A stretch of DNA of 35,368 nt from Prevotellaceae bacterium. Lineage in GTDB: Bacteria; Bacteroidota; Bacteroidia; Bacteroidales; UBA932. The stretch spans positions 1-35,368 of the forward strand of contig JAISOH010000002.1 in assembly GCA_031275825.1 (NCBI GenBank). Direction: 5' to 3'. Under the pieces are notes generated by a model that did no database searches, was not told the DNA's origin, and worked only from the letters and a program-made list of their open reading frames with translations. Of this stretch, positions 1,372 through 31,432 are shown piece after piece (the first letter of the stretch is position 1; the number at the start of each line of letters is the position of its first letter). The position numbers and the translations under genes were made by a program.

Positions 1372-2286
1372 TTATTCCATCTCTAAACTTAATTGTTTAA
1401 AATTTGACTTCGCTCTGCGAGTATGTTTCGCAAAATCTTTCACATCAAAATTGCAAACCAACGCCTCAACAACTTCTCGGCGGTTTTCAAGGTTTGCGCC
1501 GTTGTGATAAAAATGGTCTTTTGTCAGAACATTAAATTTGCCCCAATATTTTGTAATCATTTCATTTTCACGATAATCGTTGTGGTGCCAAGTAGAAAGA
1601 ACAAATTTTGCCTTCGTTTCGCTCAATAAATGAAACAGATTTTCCTCGTCTTTCTCTGTCCAACCGTTGTAATAATCGGTGTGGCGACCGTAATATGGGG
1701 GGTCGCAATAAATTATGTCGTCTTCTGTGGCAAGCGGGATAATTTCTGTGAAATTTGTATTGTAAAACTGCCAATCTGGTTCGGGTTGTACGATTTGCGA
1801 AACTGCACTTAATTGATTGACAATCTTTGTTATATATGCTTGTGCAAATCTGTCGGGCTTTTTGCAAAACGGAATATTCCAATTTCCTTTACTGCCGAAA
1901 CGCATCATTCCGTTGAAACCTGCTCGCGAAAGAAAAATAAAATCGTAAGGCGAATGTTCTCCGCTGTTAAAACGAGTTCTAACGGTTAAATAATGTTCGT
2001 AGCCGTTATTGTCTGCCTCTCGCAAAAGTTTTCCTTCTTGTTCAAGATACTGTTTCATTGCAGAAACGGTAATTAAATTTTCTTGTACCGACTTATAAAA
2101 GTTGATAATGTGCGGATTCGTGTCGTTAAGAATGGCTTTTTTGTAGCCCGAATTGAACGCCACAACGCCTGTTCCCAGAAACGGCTCAATCCATCGCCCG
2201 CTGACTTTCGGGGCAACTTCTTTTATCCAAGGAACAAGTTTAGTTTTAATTCCCTGACTTTTAATCGGTGGCACAACTACTTTCAT
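1372..2286 (-). CDS. M.EcoRV-like adenine-N6 DNA methyltransferase (Dam/alpha class)
   Basis: This 304-residue enzyme should transfer a methyl group from S-adenosylmethionine to adenine and so protect DNA from the EcoRV-like nuclease encoded just upstream. Motif order is alpha class: VPPIKSQGIKTKLVPW near residues 5-20, SAM-binding EPFLGTG at 34-40, catalytic DPPY at 195-198, and STWHHNDYRE near 236. VPPIKSQGIKTKLVP, FNGM.RF and CKKP.RFAQAYITKI match M.EcoRV closely from memory, more closely than they match Dam. The start lies 1 nt after the nuclease stop, so the pair is co-translated. Predicted target GATATC is by homology only. Confidence 0.92.
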   Translation of the reverse strand: MKVVVPPIKSQGIKTKLVPWIKEVAPKVSGRWIEPFLGTGVVAFNSGYKKAILNDTNPHIINFYKSVQENLITVSAMKQYLEQEGKLLREADNNGYEHYLTVRTRFNSGEHSPYDFIFLSRAGFNGMMRFGSKGNWNIPFCKKPDRFAQAYITKIVNQLSAVSQIVQPEPDWQFYNTNFTEIIPLATEDDIIYCDPPYYGRHTDYYNGWTEKDEENLFHLLSETKAKFVLSTWHHNDYRENEMITKYWGKFNVLTKDHFYHNGANLENRREVVEALVCNFDVKDFAKHTRRAKSNFKQLSLEME

Positions 2287-2287
2287 A

Positions 2288-3100
2288 TCAGGATTTTTTA
2301 GAGATTTTGGTTAATAAATCTGTGCGACTTTTGAACTCTAAAAAATTCTTCAAACTTGTAATTTTTACGGTTTTGCCGTCTTTGAGCATTGTTGCATTGC
2401 CGAAATTCATCCAATACTCGTCAAACCATTCTTCGCCGAGCTGGCTGAAAATACCGTTTTCGTTCTTTAAATCCTCAAAATTTAGCGTACAACCAATATT
2501 TGCAGTGTTTCCCGAACCTTGTTTGTCGCTTGCGATTTTCCATTTTTCGGCGGCAAAAAATTCAAAATCTTTTACGACAGACACAATTGATTTCAATTTG
2601 CTAATATCTAAAATTTCTCTTTCGGAAGTTTCAACTCTCGTGTAAATGATACCCAAACAATAATGTCCTGCATACTGATTATAAGGAAATTGAATGTTTT
2701 TTTGCTTGTCGCGTTCTTTGAAATATGCACCGTGTGAGCCAAGCGTAAAACTTGCTATACCACTCTTTTTGCGACAAGTTGTTTTCAAATCAACGGCAAA
2801 TTTTATGCTATCGTCCAATTTATTGACAAAAGTAAGATCGGGATAATAGTTTTGCTGTTCGGCAAGGATTATATTGTAGCCAATTTCTTCTGCAAACTGA
2901 ATTATCTGCGGGAATATATGAATTTCAAGAATTTTAGACACGATTTTCGTGTCAGACGAAATGGTATAAATGTTTTTATAAACATCAATGAAACCTTTGA
3001 TAGACCATTCGCCTGTTTCAGTCGCCACATAATTCTGCAACTTTTCGGCAAAACCGTCTAACTTTTTCTTGAACTGTATTTTATATTCTGTTTTTGTCAT
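2288..3100 (-). CDS. EcoRV-like type II restriction endonuclease
   Basis: This 270-residue protein (EcoRV is about 245) is predicted to cut unmethylated GATATC. Collinear matches to EcoRV, from memory, include SDTK at residues 49-52, QQNYYPDLT at 82-90, VDLKTT at 103-108, FTLG, PYNQYAGH and YTRVET, and later GSGNTANIG. The catalytic set is visible: D88 in YPD, then D104 and K106 in DLK, matching EcoRV D74, D90 and K92. Glu59 may match EcoRV E45. It is followed by the cognate methyltransferase after 1 nt. A -7 element (TACCTTTG) lies 25 nt upstream of the start, so the R-M pair may have its own promoter apart from the integrase operon. Confidence 0.92.
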   Translation of the reverse strand: MTKTEYKIQFKKKLDGFAEKLQNYVATETGEWSIKGFIDVYKNIYTISSDTKIVSKILEIHIFPQIIQFAEEIGYNIILAEQQNYYPDLTFVNKLDDSIKFAVDLKTTCRKKSGIASFTLGSHGAYFKERDKQKNIQFPYNQYAGHYCLGIIYTRVETSEREILDISKLKSIVSVVKDFEFFAAEKWKIASDKQGSGNTANIGCTLNFEDLKNENGIFSQLGEEWFDEYWMNFGNATMLKDGKTVKITSLKNFLEFKSRTDLLTKISKKS

Positions 3101-7888: not shown

Positions 7889-8630
7889 AACGTTCTGATT
7901 TTGTTAAAATTATACTGTTATAATCATTTGAATTTGTAAATTCATATTGCCAGATTGAATAAAAATTATTTCTTTTTTCAAAAAAGAGAGTTTTCACCTG
8001 CTTATTTGTATATTGTTGCCATTGTCTGTATGGATAAAAAAGTTGTCGTATAATAGTGTTTTTTGTAGAACTGTTTTTTGCTTCTATTAAAATAACTTGA
8101 TTTTTCCCTTCGTAGCCTGCATCAACTTCTGTTTGTACGCTTTTGGTTGTAATTAATTGATTATTTACTGTAAAAGAAAATTCAGGCGTGTATTTTCGAC
8201 CTCGAATTGTTAAAACCAAACTGTCATCTTTCAAAAAAGTACGAATTAAACTCGAAGCGTAAGCAAAATCCAAATGTTGCATTTCGGAATTACCGACCAA
8301 AGAAGTGTCTAATTTGAAACCAAGTTTGGACTTATATATTTTTACTGTTGAATGTATGTCGGGAATATTAACATAACCTTCGCCTTTTACAATAGCATAT
8401 TCACCATTTCGCGTTGGTAGCAAAAATAATTGATTGTTAATAAAAATTTCAGGTCTGTTTTCTCGACTATCTTGCTTACAAAGGATACGTACTTCTCGTT
8501 CATTTGTTTTCGTAAAATGTTTGGTTGCCATTTTTATCATTTCAGCAGAAATAATAAAAGGCATATTATCAAAATCATGATTTTGAATTTGATATTTATC
8601 AAAAATTGCTTTCCAAGAATTACTATTCAT
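7875..8630 (-). CDS. Candidate type II restriction endonuclease (PD-(D/E)XK-like)
   Basis: The 251-residue protein has no family name I can give. It carries a probable PD-(D/E)XK core: E168 and D170 in TEVDAGYEG, then strand VILIEAK with E183 and K185. A following RQLFYPYRQW segment is of the kind found where nucleases dimerise or where core helix alpha-B lies. Its ATG overlaps the stop of the upstream methyltransferase (ATGA), the usual sign of an R-M pair. It does not resemble DpnII or MboI nuclease as I remember them, although the partner is DpnA-like. Recognition site is unproven; GATC is the natural guess from the methyltransferase. Confidence 0.7.
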   Translation of the reverse strand: MNSNSWKAIFDKYQIQNHDFDNMPFIISAEMIKMATKHFTKTNEREVRILCKQDSRENRPEIFINNQLFLLPTRNGEYAIVKGEGYVNIPDIHSTVKIYKSKLGFKLDTSLVGNSEMQHLDFAYASSLIRTFLKDDSLVLTIRGRKYTPEFSFTVNNQLITTKSVQTEVDAGYEGKNQVILIEAKNSSTKNTIIRQLFYPYRQWQQYTNKQVKTLFFEKRNNFYSIWQYEFTNSNDYNSIILTKSERYEII

Positions 8631-9532
8631 AAATTAAAAAGTGTATTTTGTAGATTTAATTGATTTAGGCGATTTATCGTGAGAATTATATATTCTTTTT
8701 CTATATCAATTCCGATATATTTTCTGTTGCCAATAAATTTTGCGGCAACACCTGTTGTTCCGCCGCCATTAAAAGGATCAAGTATTAGACTGCCATCATT
8801 TGTTGAGGATGAAATAATACGTTTTAATAAAGCGAGCGGTTTTTGAGTTGGATGTTTACCAAACGTTTTTTCATCGGGCAAAGGGGTCGGAATACTCCAA
8901 ACGCTACGCATTTGTTTGTTGGGAATTTTCATTTTATCTTCTTTGAAAATGCCATTTTTCATTTTCTCATAATTAAAAATATGCTTTGCTTTTTTATCTT
9001 TTTTTGCCCATAATAAAGTTTCGTGACTATGAGCAAAAGTAGTACAAGCCAAATTAGGAGCAGCATTAGGTTTAAACCATGAAATATCGTTAAGAATATG
9101 AAATCCCAGTTTTTGAAGTAAAAATCCACATTGGTAAATACTGTGATTTGTACCACTTATCCAAATAGTTCCTTCTGGTTTCAATATTCTTTTACATTCT
9201 GTTATCCATTTTTCATGAAATTTCAAATCCTTTTCAAAACCATTACTTTTATCCCATTTTCCTTTATTTACACTTACCATTTTTCCTGCATGACAAGTAA
9301 TTCCATCATTAGAAAGATTATAAGGAGGGTCGGCAAAAATCATATCAATATAATTATCAGGAAGCGCAGCCATTATGTCCATACAATCTGCATTATACAA
9401 AACCGTATCAGATGTTTCATACATCGGTTTTATGTTTTGGGGTTCATTATTGTTTGTAATACAAAATGCGACATCTTTCATTTTAATAGCAGTTTCAGAA
9501 TCAACGATATAATATTCCATATTTTTATTCAT
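8627..9532 (-). CDS. DpnA-like beta-class DNA adenine methyltransferase
   Basis: The protein (301 residues) has beta-class motif order: DPPYNLS at residues 68-74 (motif IV) ahead of DPFNGGGTTG near residue 255 (SAM-binding motif I). MIFADPPY, VSVNKGKWDK, GTIWISGTNHSIY, PNAAPNL and KHPTQKPLALLKRI closely follow S. pneumoniae DpnA, the GATC methyltransferase of the DpnII system; M.HinfI is more distant. Target GATC is therefore the leading inference. The ATG at 9532 lies 3 nt after the stop of the peptidase gene; a second ATG follows four codons later. It heads a three-gene unit with nuclease and zinc-ribbon genes. Confidence 0.9.
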   Translation of the reverse strand: MNKNMEYYIVDSETAIKMKDVAFCITNNNEPQNIKPMYETSDTVLYNADCMDIMAALPDNYIDMIFADPPYNLSNDGITCHAGKMVSVNKGKWDKSNGFEKDLKFHEKWITECKRILKPEGTIWISGTNHSIYQCGFLLQKLGFHILNDISWFKPNAAPNLACTTFAHSHETLLWAKKDKKAKHIFNYEKMKNGIFKEDKMKIPNKQMRSVWSIPTPLPDEKTFGKHPTQKPLALLKRIISSSTNDGSLILDPFNGGGTTGVAAKFIGNRKYIGIDIEKEYIILTINRLNQLNLQNTLFNL

Positions 9533-14862: not shown

Positions 14863-15243
14863 ATGGCAATTAAATACACCGTAAGCGAAAGGGGAAATCC
14901 GTTGCAACCCCAGCAACCCAAAAAATGGTATGCAAATGCAAAAAGCACAGGCGACATCACATTAAAAGCCCTGGGTAAAGAAATTGCGCAACGCAGCACA
15001 GTAAGTCCTGCCGACACACAGGCAGTTTTGGTAGCGCTTACCGAAGCGCTTGCAGAACGCCTTGCCGAAGGTAAAATTGTACGTTTAGGCGATTTTGGCG
15101 CATTTCAGGTAAGCATAAGCAGCGAAGGCGCTGAAAGCGAAGCAAAATTCAATGCCTCGCTGATTAAGAGTAGCAAGGTTGTTTTCCGTCCCGGAACCGA
15201 CCTCAAAGAAATGCTTAACAATCTGAAATACGAAAAGGCATAG
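14863..15243 (+). CDS. HU-like (HU-HIG type) DNA-binding protein
   Basis: This 126-residue protein belongs to the Bacteroidetes HU/IHF-related group, longer than classical HU (about 90). It starts MAIKYTVSERGNPLQPQQPK, a lineage-specific N-terminal extension (KWYANAKSTGDITLKALGKE), then an HU-fold core with AEGKIVRLGDFGAFQVSIS around residues 68-86 and KVVFRPGTDLKEML near 106-119. RLGDFGAF corresponds to the HU segment before the DNA-binding arms. It probably shapes or marks DNA locally; its targets are unknown. It has its own promoter and is followed at once by five 22-bp tandem repeats, a possible binding array. Confidence 0.85.
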   Translation: MAIKYTVSERGNPLQPQQPKKWYANAKSTGDITLKALGKEIAQRSTVSPADTQAVLVALTEALAERLAEGKIVRLGDFGAFQVSISSEGAESEAKFNASLIKSSKVVFRPGTDLKEMLNNLKYEKA

Positions 15244-15259
15244 TTGTTTTGTCTGAAAG

Positions 15260-15369
15260 GTATATACTTTTTGCAATAAATGTATATACCTTTTCCTGAA
15301 AAAGTATATACGTTTTTAATGAAACGTATATACCTTTTTGAATAAGGGTATAAAACGTTTTGAAAAGAC
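15260..15369. repeat. Five tandem 22-bp repeats, four starting with GTATATAC
   Basis: GTATATAC occurs at 15260, 15282, 15304 and 15326, exactly 22 bp apart, each followed by a T-run and an A-rich tail. A fifth, degenerate unit begins GTATAAAA at 15348 in the same register. The eight-base core is palindromic, and 22 bp is close to two helical turns, so all cores face the same side of the helix. The array starts 17 nt after the HU-like stop. It resembles an iteron or operator array. It is not a CRISPR array: there are no spacers. Confidence 0.9.
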
Positions 15370-15560: not shown

Positions 15561-18179
15561 ATGAAACGCAGATTGCTTATATTGATTCTGTTATTTCCGA
15601 TCTTGATGAACGCGCAAATTGCAGAGGATTTTGAGTTGCAAAATATCGAAACATGGAAACAGACGCCGGAAAACCGTTGGGCGGCATCGCAAACCGATGC
15701 TGTTGAAGGAAATTTTTCGCTGAAACATATCTTTGACAATACTGCAGCAGGACACGACAGAATATCTGTTTCGGTTGAAAACATTGATATTGCGGCAGGA
15801 AATGTTACATGGAAATTTTTAATCAGGCACGGATATAATCCATCATCATCAAACTGTTGGGCAACCTTTCTGATGAGCGATAAGGATGCTGCAATGATGA
15901 TGAAAGACAGCGCCGTAAATGCTTATGCCATTGGCGTTAATCTTGTTGGAAGCAGCGATTTTGTTTATCTTTACAAAATAACAAACGGAATTGCAACTCA
16001 ACTTGTAAATACAAATATCAACTGGGAAACCGCTATAAAATCAACAGGAAAAGCGGCGATGGAAGTAACACGAAAAACAGACGGAGAATGGAATATACGC
16101 ATAGACAGGACAGGAAGTTTTGAAAATTTTGAACAGGCAGGAACTCCGGTAATCGACACCGAGCACAGCAACTTTAATCATTTCGGATTGCTATATACCT
16201 ACACTTCGAGCGCCGACATGCGTCTTTGGTTCGATAAACTTACAATCACATCAAGCATATTGCCGGCACAAATAACAGGCGTAAATAAATTAAGCAAAAA
16301 CCAACTTGCAATATCAATAAGCAAATCGGTGGAAAGTATCGGAAACATAAGTTTAATCAATCAAAACGGAGAAGATGTAAATATAATTTCCCAAAGCGTG
16401 GAAGGGCAAAACTATGATAAAATCATTGTAACAACCGAACCTTTGCACGGACGGAAATTTACAGTATCAATCAATAACCTGACCGATAAGGATGAAATTA
16501 CAACAAACACCGCAAAAACATTTTTTATTGATAATTTTGACTATGGCGACGTTGTTTTCAACGAAATAATGTTTCGTTCCGAACCTGTGGTCGGATTACC
16601 AAACAGAAAATATATAGAACTGTACAACCGTACGCAATACAGCATAAATACAGGCGATTGGAAAATACTGTACGGAACGGCAGGAGAAGCCCGAATTACA
16701 GCCGACAGTATTTCTGCATGTTCGTATGCGGTTATCTGTACATCAAGCGCAGTAGCAGATTTGTCGCCTTACGGAAAAGTTATTTCTGCCGTTTCTTTTC
16801 CCACATTGACATATTCGGGACAAAACCTGAAACTTGTCGATAACGAAAATAATCTTATTGCAGCAGTTAATTATCTGCCCGACTGGCATAACAACACAGA
16901 AAAAACAGCAGGAGGCTGGTCGCTCGAAAAAATAGATTTTGACAATCTTTCGGAATTAAGCAACAACTGGAAATCAAGCCTCGATGAAAAAGGAGGAACG
17001 CCGGGACAAAAAAATTCCGTATTCGGCGAAAATCCCGATAACAAACCGCCAGTTCTTATTCAATGGGAAATTTTAGACAATAACAAATTGCGACTGATTT
17101 TCAACGAACCGATAAACATGGAAACCGCATCGCAAACCGAAATTTATTTTGTTGATAACAATATCGGAAATCCCGTAAATGTGATAACGGATTATAATGA
17201 AATAACATTAATTTTTGACGATATTATTGAACTTGGCGTAATTTATAATCTTACGGTACAAAATACTTTTGCCGATATTGCAGGAAACGCTACTGTTGAT
17301 TTTAATCTTGCTTTCGGCATAATGCACAAGCCGCAAAATAACGATGTTATTATAAACGAAACCCTTTTCAATCCTTACCCAAACGGCGTGGATTTTGTGG
17401 AAATTTACAACCGCTCACATAAAAACATTGATTTCAAGGACCTGTTTTTGGCAACACGCAACAAAAGTACAGGTTTGTTGCAGTCAGTACATCGCATACA
17501 GTCAAAAAGCGGTTTTCTGCAAACTCAACAATTTGCCGTACTTACAACAAATCCCGAAACTGTAAGTCAGCAGTATTATGTTCAAAATCCTGAAAATATG
17601 ATAACGATGGAACAGATGCCTGCGTATCCCAACACAGACGGAACTGTTGTGCTGCTTGACGAACAGCAAAATATAATCGATGAGTTTTCATATAACGAAA
17701 ATATGCATTTCAAATTTTTGACAGACGTTGAAGGCGTTTCTCTTGAACGTACAAACTACGAAAAACCGACAAACGACAGAAATAACTGGCATTCCGCATC
17801 AGGAGATGCCGGATATGCAACACCGACTTACAAAAACTCGCAGGCAGAATTTAATTCTGAAAATTACGGCTTTAATATTTCGCCGCAAACATTCTCGCCC
17901 GACAATAGCGGTATTGACGACGAACTGCTTATTACTTACTCAATGCCTGAATCGGGATACATTGCAAACATAAAAATATATGATTCGCAGGGACGTCATA
18001 TTACCGATGTACAAAACAACGCTTTGCTTGGAACACAGGGCAGTTTTATATGGAACGGACTGAATGACAGAAAACAAAAGGTAAACATTGGCGTTTATAT
18101 AGTTTATATTGAATATTTTAACCTGCAGGGAAAAGTTACAAAAGAAAAGAAAACATGCATTGTAGCAGCGCAAAAATAA
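15561..18179 (+). CDS. Secreted lamin-tail-domain (LTD) protein with FlgD-like C-terminus
   Basis: The ATG at 15561 gives a clear signal peptide (MKRRLLILILLFPILMNAQ), so I prefer it to 15537; length is then 872. The order is an N-terminal jelly-roll-like region (to about 240), a first lamin-tail domain (DVVFNEIMFRSEP, KYIELYNRT) near 335-450, an SbsA-type Ig-like domain (DNKLRLIFNEPIN) near 500-600, a second lamin-tail domain (DVIINETLFNPYP, DFVEIYNRS) near 610-720, and a C-terminal FlgD-like Ig fold (IKIYDSQGRHI, GSFIWNGLNDR) of the kind used in gliding/type IX secreted proteins. It is probably exported to the surface or outside. The enzyme activity, if any, is unknown. Confidence 0.85.
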   Translation: MKRRLLILILLFPILMNAQIAEDFELQNIETWKQTPENRWAASQTDAVEGNFSLKHIFDNTAAGHDRISVSVENIDIAAGNVTWKFLIRHGYNPSSSNCWATFLMSDKDAAMMMKDSAVNAYAIGVNLVGSSDFVYLYKITNGIATQLVNTNINWETAIKSTGKAAMEVTRKTDGEWNIRIDRTGSFENFEQAGTPVIDTEHSNFNHFGLLYTYTSSADMRLWFDKLTITSSILPAQITGVNKLSKNQLAISISKSVESIGNISLINQNGEDVNIISQSVEGQNYDKIIVTTEPLHGRKFTVSINNLTDKDEITTNTAKTFFIDNFDYGDVVFNEIMFRSEPVVGLPNRKYIELYNRTQYSINTGDWKILYGTAGEARITADSISACSYAVICTSSAVADLSPYGKVISAVSFPTLTYSGQNLKLVDNENNLIAAVNYLPDWHNNTEKTAGGWSLEKIDFDNLSELSNNWKSSLDEKGGTPGQKNSVFGENPDNKPPVLIQWEILDNNKLRLIFNEPINMETASQTEIYFVDNNIGNPVNVITDYNEITLIFDDIIELGVIYNLTVQNTFADIAGNATVDFNLAFGIMHKPQNNDVIINETLFNPYPNGVDFVEIYNRSHKNIDFKDLFLATRNKSTGLLQSVHRIQSKSGFLQTQQFAVLTTNPETVSQQYYVQNPENMITMEQMPAYPNTDGTVVLLDEQQNIIDEFSYNENMHFKFLTDVEGVSLERTNYEKPTNDRNNWHSASGDAGYATPTYKNSQAEFNSENYGFNISPQTFSPDNSGIDDELLITYSMPESGYIANIKIYDSQGRHITDVQNNALLGTQGSFIWNGLNDRKQKVNIGVYIVYIEYFNLQGKVTKEKKTCIVAAQK

Positions 18180-30442: not shown

Positions 30443-31432
30443 TTAATCAAACAGTGTTTTTTCCATTTTAGGTAAAGTATAGTTGCTTTTATCAACAATA
30501 TTTAAAATTGACCAATAGCCACGTCCGTATTCATCAGAAATGAGATTTATTGCATTTTTTTTAGAAATCCCTTTTTGCATTAACTGTTTAAATTCTGACA
30601 TAATTTGATACCTTTCTTTTTCTGACAGAGATTTTCCTTTATTAAAAAATTTATTTTGTGGAACCGTTCGCTGTTCAACAAGAAATTCTCCAAATGCAAT
30701 TTTTTTTGTTTCTTCCATTTGATAATCAAAAGCGTTTTTATTGATTTCAAAGCCGCAGGCATACCTTCCTAAACCAACAGCAACTTTTGCCGTAGAAAAA
30801 CTGCCTAAGAAAAAATCACATACCGTATCATTAGGGTTACTCGAATATAAAATCATTTTAGTTAAAAGCGATTTAGGTAATTCATTTTTATTTTTTACTT
30901 GCCCGGGCTTGTATTCGCGATTAATTATCCATACATCTTCTCTGTCTAAATAATTCAAACTGCCTCCATTTTCATTTTTTTCACAATCAGCATAAAAAGC
31001 ATTGGTGTTGAAAGTAATATTCTCTCCCTGTTTTATAAAATATAGAATGTGATAATGAGAAGATATAAATTTTTTACTTGTATAAACTCCAAAATTATAT
31101 TTCCATATAATATGATTTCTTTCTTGCAGATTTGTTTCTGCCAAAGCATTTAATATATGCCTTAAATTTGAATATCCGGAAATAATATAAATACTGCCGC
31201 CCGGTTTAAGTACCCGTTCTGCTTCTTTAATCCATTTAAACGAAAAATCAGGATATTTTTCTTTTGAAATTTCAACATAACCTTCAATAACATTATTTTC
31301 ATCACGATTATAATGTTTGTCCAGTTTATCTCCGTTGATGCCATAAGGCGGGTCGGAAATAATCAGGTCAACCGAATTATCCTTTAGATATTTTTTTGCG
31401 CCTTCAATGCAATCTTCGTTGTAAAACATCAT
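30443..31432 (-). CDS. Beta-class DNA methyltransferase of the third R-M unit
   Basis: This 329-residue enzyme has catalytic DPPYGING at residues 27-34 ahead of the SAM-binding region near 220 (TVCDFFLGSFSTAKVAVGLG), which is beta-class order. The SAM loop reads FLGSFS in place of the usual FxGxG, a variant I recall in some restriction-linked enzymes. A C-terminal extension of about 80 residues (EKERYQIMSEFKQLMQKGIS) is unusual and may bind DNA. Its ATG overlaps the end of the nuclease reading frame (ATGA). It modifies adenine-N6 or cytosine-N4; the target is unknown. It has no sequence kinship with the other two methyltransferases beyond common motifs. Confidence 0.88.
   Translation of the reverse strand: MMFYNEDCIEGAKKYLKDNSVDLIISDPPYGINGDKLDKHYNRDENNVIEGYVEISKEKYPDFSFKWIKEAERVLKPGGSIYIISGYSNLRHILNALAETNLQERNHIIWKYNFGVYTSKKFISSHYHILYFIKQGENITFNTNAFYADCEKNENGGSLNYLDREDVWIINREYKPGQVKNKNELPKSLLTKMILYSSNPNDTVCDFFLGSFSTAKVAVGLGRYACGFEINKNAFDYQMEETKKIAFGEFLVEQRTVPQNKFFNKGKSLSEKERYQIMSEFKQLMQKGISKKNAINLISDEYGRGYWSILNIVDKSNYTLPKMEKTLFD

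What the first reader, a model, noticed from the sequence alone, without database searches (positions are those of the whole stretch)
15260..15369. Five 22-bp tandem repeats with a GTATATAC core, in exact helical phase behind an HU-like gene
GTATATAC recurs at 15260, 15282, 15304 and 15326, with a degenerate unit at 15348, always 22 bp apart. A palindromic core at two-turn spacing places each site on the same DNA face, as in operator or iteron arrays. It begins 17 nt after the stop of an HU-like DNA-binding protein and lies ahead of the lamin-tail protein gene. It matches no feature class I know for this phylum.
Basis: seen in the sequence. Interest (0 to 1): 0.72.

Follow-up and report, generated by a model that had tools for sequence, protein, structure and literature searches.

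The report
HU gene with its own repeat array
In many Bacteroidota bacteria, a gene for an HU-type DNA-bending protein is followed directly by a row of 22-base sites whose central letters differ from gene to gene, and further rows with matching letters lie elsewhere in the same genome, as if each protein carried its own DNA address and the two changed together.

Summary
The array is real: four exact GTATATAC cores at 22-bp spacing, degenerate units on both sides, starting 17 nt after an HU-HIG (PF18291, TIGR01201) gene. It is not a one-off minisatellite. Each unit is AAA-N10-TTT plus 6 bp, the N10 being a dyad. The window's genome has seven such arrays. Across Bacteroidota (Bacteroidales, Chryseobacterium, Empedobacter) this HU subfamily carries a 22-bp AAA-N10-TTT array just after its stop codon: at least 3 strict units in 21/73 HU loci against 1/248 neighbouring genes (p=5e-14). 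The core differs from HU gene to HU gene. Dispersed arrays carry the core of their own genome's HU gene (p=0.0003). At one orthologous site, between efflux genes, three genomes keep the array's frame while the inner core letters switched; in two the core is essentially that of the genome's HU array, in the third it is similar (G003 against G006: 11/12 inner mismatches, 7/88 elsewhere, p=2.5e-9). Some arrays also spread by block copying. Best reading: cognate binding arrays of an HU/IHF-fold protein whose specificity drifts together with its sites. Binding and function are inferred. I found no description of this in the open-access papers searched.

The parts
14863..15243 (+). HU-HIG / HU_rel family DNA-binding protein gene (126 aa), the gene the array follows
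   Evidence: PF18291 4e-34, TIGR01201 1.4e-27; AlphaFold model with beta-arm strands 79-87 and 101-110, pLDDT 87; best PDB fold matches are HU, Hbb and IHF, at weak E-values
15234..15249 (.). degenerate unit 0, AAAGGCATAGTTGTTT, overlapping the HU stop codon
   Evidence: in register with the array; in G001, G088 and G005 the same unit reads AAAGGTATAANCGTTT
15256..15271 (.). unit 1, AAA-GGTATATACT-TTT
15278..15293 (.). unit 2, AAA-TGTATATACC-TTT
15300..15315 (.). unit 3, AAA-AGTATATACG-TTT
15322..15337 (.). unit 4, AAA-CGTATATACC-TTT
15344..15359 (.). degenerate unit 5, AAG-GGTATAAAAC-GTT
15561..18179 (+). lamin-tail-domain secreted protein downstream; a neighbour, not part of the system
   Evidence: PF00932 1.9e-23; neighbours of the array differ in other genomes

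Best explanation
The array is the home copy of a set of cognate binding sites for the HU-HIG protein encoded directly upstream. Each 22-bp unit is one dyad bound by one HU-type homodimer: each monomer reads a 5-bp half-site running inward from a flanking A-tract, and the 22-bp repeat lets dimers sit side by side on bent DNA. Copies of the array elsewhere in the chromosome are further sites for the same protein, so it acts as a site-specific nucleoid protein, bending or bridging at these loci and affecting local folding or transcription, including its own gene's 3' end. Each HU paralog has its own core. When the protein's preference changes, the home array and the dispersed arrays follow, by point change in the half-sites and by copying of whole arrays. 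Shown: the anatomy, the phylum-wide linkage, the per-gene cores, the matching within genomes, and the core switch at an orthologous site. Inferred: that this HU protein is the binder, one dimer per unit, and the architectural or regulatory effect.
For: Linkage: at least 3 strict units within 160 bp 3' of the HU gene in 21/73 loci, against 1/248 other genes in the same loci (p=5e-14) and 0/71 HU 5' flanks. Arrays often start 15-22 nt after the last sense codon. Presence: 15/19 relatives with a close HU have arrays, against 13/130 without (p=7e-10; some of the 13 are AT-rich chance hits). Own-genome match: 41 dispersed arrays in 10 genomes score 3.09 with their own genome's HU cores, permuted mean 0.03, p=0.0003. 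Two paralogs, two cores in the window's genome: C159 HU has GTATATAC with six other arrays; C134 HU has GATAACTATC with the same array at two or more other sites. G129, in another family, also has two HU genes, two cores, and a remote array for each. Orthologous switch: between the efflux-adaptor and TolC-like genes, three inner tetrads are ATAT/ATAT/ATAT in G000, CTGT/GCGT/GCGT in G003 and CGAA/CGAA/CGAA in G006, while frame and spacers are conserved. G000 and G006 match their HU arrays (GTATATAC; GGTCGAAACC); G003 resembles its own (half-site GATAC shared). Hybrid units in G004 join the two half-site types, e.g. GGATT|ATACC. Unit dyad symmetry exceeds shuffles at all five position pairs. HU protein similarity tracks core similarity (Mantel p=0.0002), the beta-arm adding beyond the body (partial p=0.0006); the top single column, 84, is on the arm.
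Against: No binding or expression data. Some GTATATAC arrays are in genomes where no matching HU was found (G008; G005 has only the last codons of the gene), though these assemblies are 83-93% complete. G002 and G064 have the HU but no strict 3-unit array. Several genomes with arrays (G099, G147, G059) lack a close HU; G099 and G147 have only divergent ones without the array beside them. Whole-array copying occurs, so own-genome matching alone could reflect copying. HU proteins usually bind with little sequence specificity (general knowledge).
Confidence: 0.62

Rival explanations
1. A REPIN-like selfish or mobile repeat. The array (or an element of about 120-450 bp holding it) is copied around the genome, and cores match because dispersed arrays are recent copies of the one beside the HU gene. 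The HU gene is a preferred harbour or a helper, not a regulator using the sites.
For: C98, C137 and C156 arrays share a 420-490 bp block at 90-95% identity. The C134-type array recurs at 97-100% identity with different left flanks at C43 and C44. An IS200/Y1 transposase lies 430 bp from the G001 HU array. Arrays often sit at contig ends, as repeats do.
Against: At the adaptor-TolC site, spacers are kept by descent while the inner core changes in each unit (11/12 against 7/88 mismatches), which block copying does not produce. No transposase was seen consistently beside the arrays. The HU linkage holds across Bacteroidales and Flavobacteriales with diverged cores.
Confidence: 0.2
2. Intrinsic (RNA-hairpin) transcription terminators: neighbouring units pair into stems with A- and U-tracts, ending transcription of the HU gene and of others.
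For: RNA folds of both strands are far more stable than shuffles (z -6.2 and -6.4). A terminator-like site is found at 15304-15333. Some arrays, e.g. Breznakibacter L155 and Chryseobacterium L176/L186, have inverted neighbouring units. The nearest gene end is a 3' end in 20 of 28 arrays.
Against: Units are often direct repeats of imperfect dyads that pair poorly (L138 GAATGGATAC x4: direct 1.0, hairpin 0.6; L116; L177). Four of 28 arrays lie between divergent genes, not significantly fewer than background (p=0.44). A terminator needs no sequence match between loci, nor parallel core switches.
Confidence: 0.1
3. Binding arrays for a different, unidentified protein; the HU gene is linked because its 3' end is a main regulated site.
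For: Linkage does not prove the neighbour is the binder; the core correlates with the HU body as well as the arm.
Against: Two HU paralogs in one genome each have their own core, which most simply names the paralogs as the readers.
Confidence: 0.07
4. A plain minisatellite without function.
For: Tandem repeats can arise by slippage.
Against: Phylum-wide placement after one gene family, dyad symmetry and matched cores.
Confidence: 0.01

Closest known systems
IHF binding to BIME-1/RIB elements in enterobacteria (repeats at 3' ends of transcription units; cited in PMC2817692)
   Same: an HU/IHF-fold protein and dispersed intergenic repeats, often near gene 3' ends
   Different: here each HU gene carries its own array of 22-bp dyads directly after its stop codon, the core differs per gene, and it changes together with dispersed arrays; RIB/BIME elements are REP-based
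REPIN-RAYT systems (PMC2817692, PMC8049555)
   Same: a gene associated with a private, diversifying set of palindromic repeats that also disperse in the genome
   Different: the linked gene is an HU-fold DNA-binding protein, not a Y1 transposase; uniform 22-bp arrays; core switches without copying at an orthologous site
ParB-parS and plasmid centromere arrays (general knowledge)
   Same: a DNA-binding protein gene next to its dyad sites, with further sites in the chromosome
   Different: no ParA or ParB noted beside the array; up to dozens of array hits per genome; fast core turnover
BrickBuilt MITE of Porphyromonas gingivalis (PMC4596501)
   Same: intergenic tandem repeats of about two helical turns in a Bacteroidales genome
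   Different: 23-bp consensus AGAYCATARTATCCTCTCRTRTG inside a MITE with leader and tail; no AAA-N10-TTT dyad frame; no HU-gene linkage reported in the passages read

Membership tests
HU-HIG / HU_rel proteins (PF18291, TIGR01201) | profile score above the curated cut-off | tested here: met
   117.8 bits against 26.2 and 96.6 against 68.6
REPIN-RAYT | linked REP-associated tyrosine transposase | tested here: not met
   linked gene is HU-HIG; one Y1 transposase in G001 only, at 29 bits against a cut-off of 80 for REP_Tyr_transpos
REPIN-RAYT | dispersed palindromes related to those beside the gene | tested here: met
   own-genome core match p=0.0003
Intrinsic terminators | adjacent units complementary, GC-rich stem, then U-tract | tested here: inconclusive
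   one terminator-like site in the array; across loci hairpin pairing 0.59 against direct repeat 0.65
Intrinsic terminators | never only between divergent genes | tested here: not met
   4 of 28 arrays between divergent genes
BrickBuilt MITE | 23-nt consensus with leader and tail TIRs | tested here: not met
   22-bp units with unrelated consensus (PMC4596501); TIRs not searched
ParB-parS | ParA/ParB genes next to the sites | tested here: inconclusive
   flanking proteins read by eye only; profile scans covered 7 proteins, including the HU and lamin-tail genes
Curated structured RNA | match to an Rfam family | tested here: not met
   no match in the window at gathering score
Site-specific nucleoid protein with its sites (IHF-like) | the protein binds the repeated site | not testable with these tools
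   needs EMSA or ChIP-seq

The most novel reading that the evidence does not exclude
A self-addressed chromatin system: HU-fold proteins that read specific half-sites, each gene carrying its own address array, with repeated co-evolution of protein and sites across a phylum (comparable to REPIN-RAYT or PRDM9-like turnover, but for a bacterial HU protein) and with several addresses coexisting in one cell.
Probability: 0.4. Interest if true: 0.9.

Novelty: new variant of a known kind. Interest (0 to 1): 0.8.

Why it matters
HU proteins are taught as largely non-specific DNA benders. A phylum-wide subfamily whose genes each carry a distinct array, matched by arrays elsewhere in the genome, would mean sequence-specific HU proteins with private sites, a natural series for learning how the HU/IHF arm reads DNA, and a bacterial case of fast protein-site co-evolution. 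It would also give many unannotated Bacteroidota intergenic repeats an identity.

Tried and rejected
Rfam scan of the window: nothing. PLSDB plasmids, DNA search with the array: nothing. The single GTATATAC motif as a genome-wide signal: rejected, equal to the control. BrickBuilt MITE: different consensus. Terminators as the whole story: direct-repeat and divergent-gene cases. Lamin-tail gene as partner: neighbours of arrays vary. Arm-only specificity: not established, the HU body correlates too. Papers on HU-HIG, 22-bp repeats or HU ChIP-seq in Bacteroidetes/Bacteroides: none found in the held library, which lacks most subscription journals. Three 22-bp repeats (G000:C86, G003:C10, G007:C62) look unrelated and were not pursued.

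Full report
OBSERVATION. Four GTATATAC cores lie exactly 22 bp apart at 15260-15333, with a degenerate fifth at 15348. TRF gives 22 bp x5.0 and 44 bp x2.5. The four intact units are AAA-N-GTATATAC-N-TTT (16 bp) separated by 6 variable bp, and a further degenerate unit overlaps the HU stop codon. 22 bp is 2.1 turns, so phasing is close but not exact.

GENE. The upstream gene encodes a 126-aa HU-HIG/HU_rel protein. An AlphaFold model shows helices, then a two-strand arm at 79-87 and 101-110. The best PDB fold matches are HU, Hbb and IHF, with E-values no better than 0.01; by sequence profile the best is HU 3rhi at 1.4e-5.

OWN GENOME. The 2.46-Mb assembly (202 contigs, 85% complete) has seven GTATATAC arrays. 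Isolated GTATATAC is not enriched. The generic pattern (AAA-N10-TTT-N6)x3 finds only these loci plus one unrelated repeat (C86), with 1 hit for the reversed control. A second HU paralog (C134, 61% identity) is followed by an array with core GATAACTATC. I predicted dispersed copies of that core, and the search found the same array at contigs C43 and C44, plus C192, which may be the other end of one of these.

RELATIVES. GTATATAC arrays occur in 8 of 149 genomes searched (window genome included), one of them in another family. Reading the 3' flanks of HU genes showed the main point: the 22-bp AAA-N10-TTT frame follows many HU genes, but the core differs between them, e.g. GTATATAC, GGGTTAACCC, GATACGTGTC, GGGACGCCCC, GGTCGAAACC and GC-rich forms. 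In GTDB genomes, 80 loci of this HU subfamily include Anaerophaga, Marinifilum, Breznakibacter, Chryseobacterium, Empedobacter and Riemerella; most flanks show units, some do not. Counting only perfect AAA/TTT flanks, at least 3 units are found 3' of 21/73 HU genes, 1/248 other genes in the same loci (p=5e-14) and 0/71 HU 5' flanks, with none expected from shuffles.

MATCHING WITHIN GENOMES. The generic pattern gives from one to dozens of hits in most genomes with a close HU, and none in five relatives without one. By 2x2 count: 15/19 with HU against 13/130 without (p=7e-10); some of the 13 are AT-rich hits matched by the control, and G073, G099 and G147 do have divergent HU-HIG genes, of which G073:C128 has a 22-bp array of another frame. 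Scored with half-site matrices, 41 dispersed arrays in 10 genomes fit their own genome's HU cores better than permuted genomes (3.09 against 0.03, p=0.0003). Misfits include G008 and G005 (GTATATAC arrays, no matching HU found), the G006 arrays of GGGTTATCCC type and G030's GCAGGCGAGC arrays. In G006 and G003, an HU of the T-K arm type, which elsewhere often goes with GGGTTAACCC, is cut at a contig end, so its array cannot be seen.

CORE SWITCH AT ONE SITE. An efflux adaptor gene and a TolC-like gene flank an array in G000, G003 and G006; other genus members examined have none there. The 100-column gapless alignment keeps frame and spacers, while the inner tetrads of three units read ATAT x3, CTGT/GCGT/GCGT and CGAA x3. 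G003 against G006: 11/12 inner mismatches, 7/88 elsewhere (p=2.5e-9). The G000 and G006 cores are those of their HU arrays; for G003 the match is similarity (shared half-site GATAC, inner ACGT/GCGT against GCGT). In G004, arrays mix half-sites of two types in one unit. Copying of the home array cannot give this pattern; point change under a trans-acting reader can. Short-tract conversion among units within the array is not excluded.

PROTEIN AND CORE. Over 44 HU-array pairs, protein similarity correlates with core similarity (r 0.27 arm, 0.33 body); the arm keeps a partial correlation of 0.19 (p=0.0006) and the body 0.27 (p=0.0002). The best single column is arm residue 84. These tests do not correct fully for phylogeny.

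CONTEXT. Non-HU arrays sit in convergent (10), codirectional (14) and divergent (4) gaps, not different from background; the nearest gene end is 3' in 20 of 28. Both strands fold into hairpins far better than shuffles, a by-product of dyad units, but many arrays are direct repeats that pair poorly.

DISPERSAL. Two further routes exist: a 420-490 bp block shared by three arrays, and near-identical copies of the C134-type array with different flanks. In G005 the last codons of the HU gene remain before an array.

LIMITS. ORFs were called mechanically; most genomes are fragmented MAGs; only seven proteins were scanned by profile; no experiment shows binding. The thresholds and half-site frames of the scripts were chosen after first seeing the arrays. 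Claims of novelty rest on open-access full text only.

Noticed in passing
G005:C39, L042 2230-2336: The last codons of an HU-HIG gene (about KMLNNLKYEKV*) stand directly before a GTATATAC array with no HU ORF upstream: a relic or a copied 3' end.
   Followed up: partly
G000 C98, C137, C156; G008 C45, C92: These arrays lie inside a 420-490 bp dispersed block (88-95% identity within a genome), possibly a small mobile element.
   Followed up: partly
G000:C43, C44 and C192 contig ends: The C134-type array is repeated with different flanks and breaks the assembly there.
   Followed up: partly
G073:C128, L253 3' of a divergent HU (38% identity): A 22-bp array with CAA...TTG flanks (CAAGGTACRGTCATTGATTTGT) follows a more distant HU-HIG gene.
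   Followed up: no
G099 (several contigs): Arrays of AAACCATGCATGGTTT type without an HU gene beside them; the G099 HU-HIG genes are followed by another ORF instead.
   Followed up: no
G007:C62 3152-3211, G000:C86 2761-2864, G003:C10: Other 22-bp repeats (AAACGGATGAAAATTTCTGTCT type); the G007 one lies about 110 bp upstream of an HU gene.
   Followed up: no
window 1372-3100, 8627-9532, 30443-31432: By sequence these look like DNA methyltransferase genes and a possible restriction gene; not scanned.
   Followed up: no
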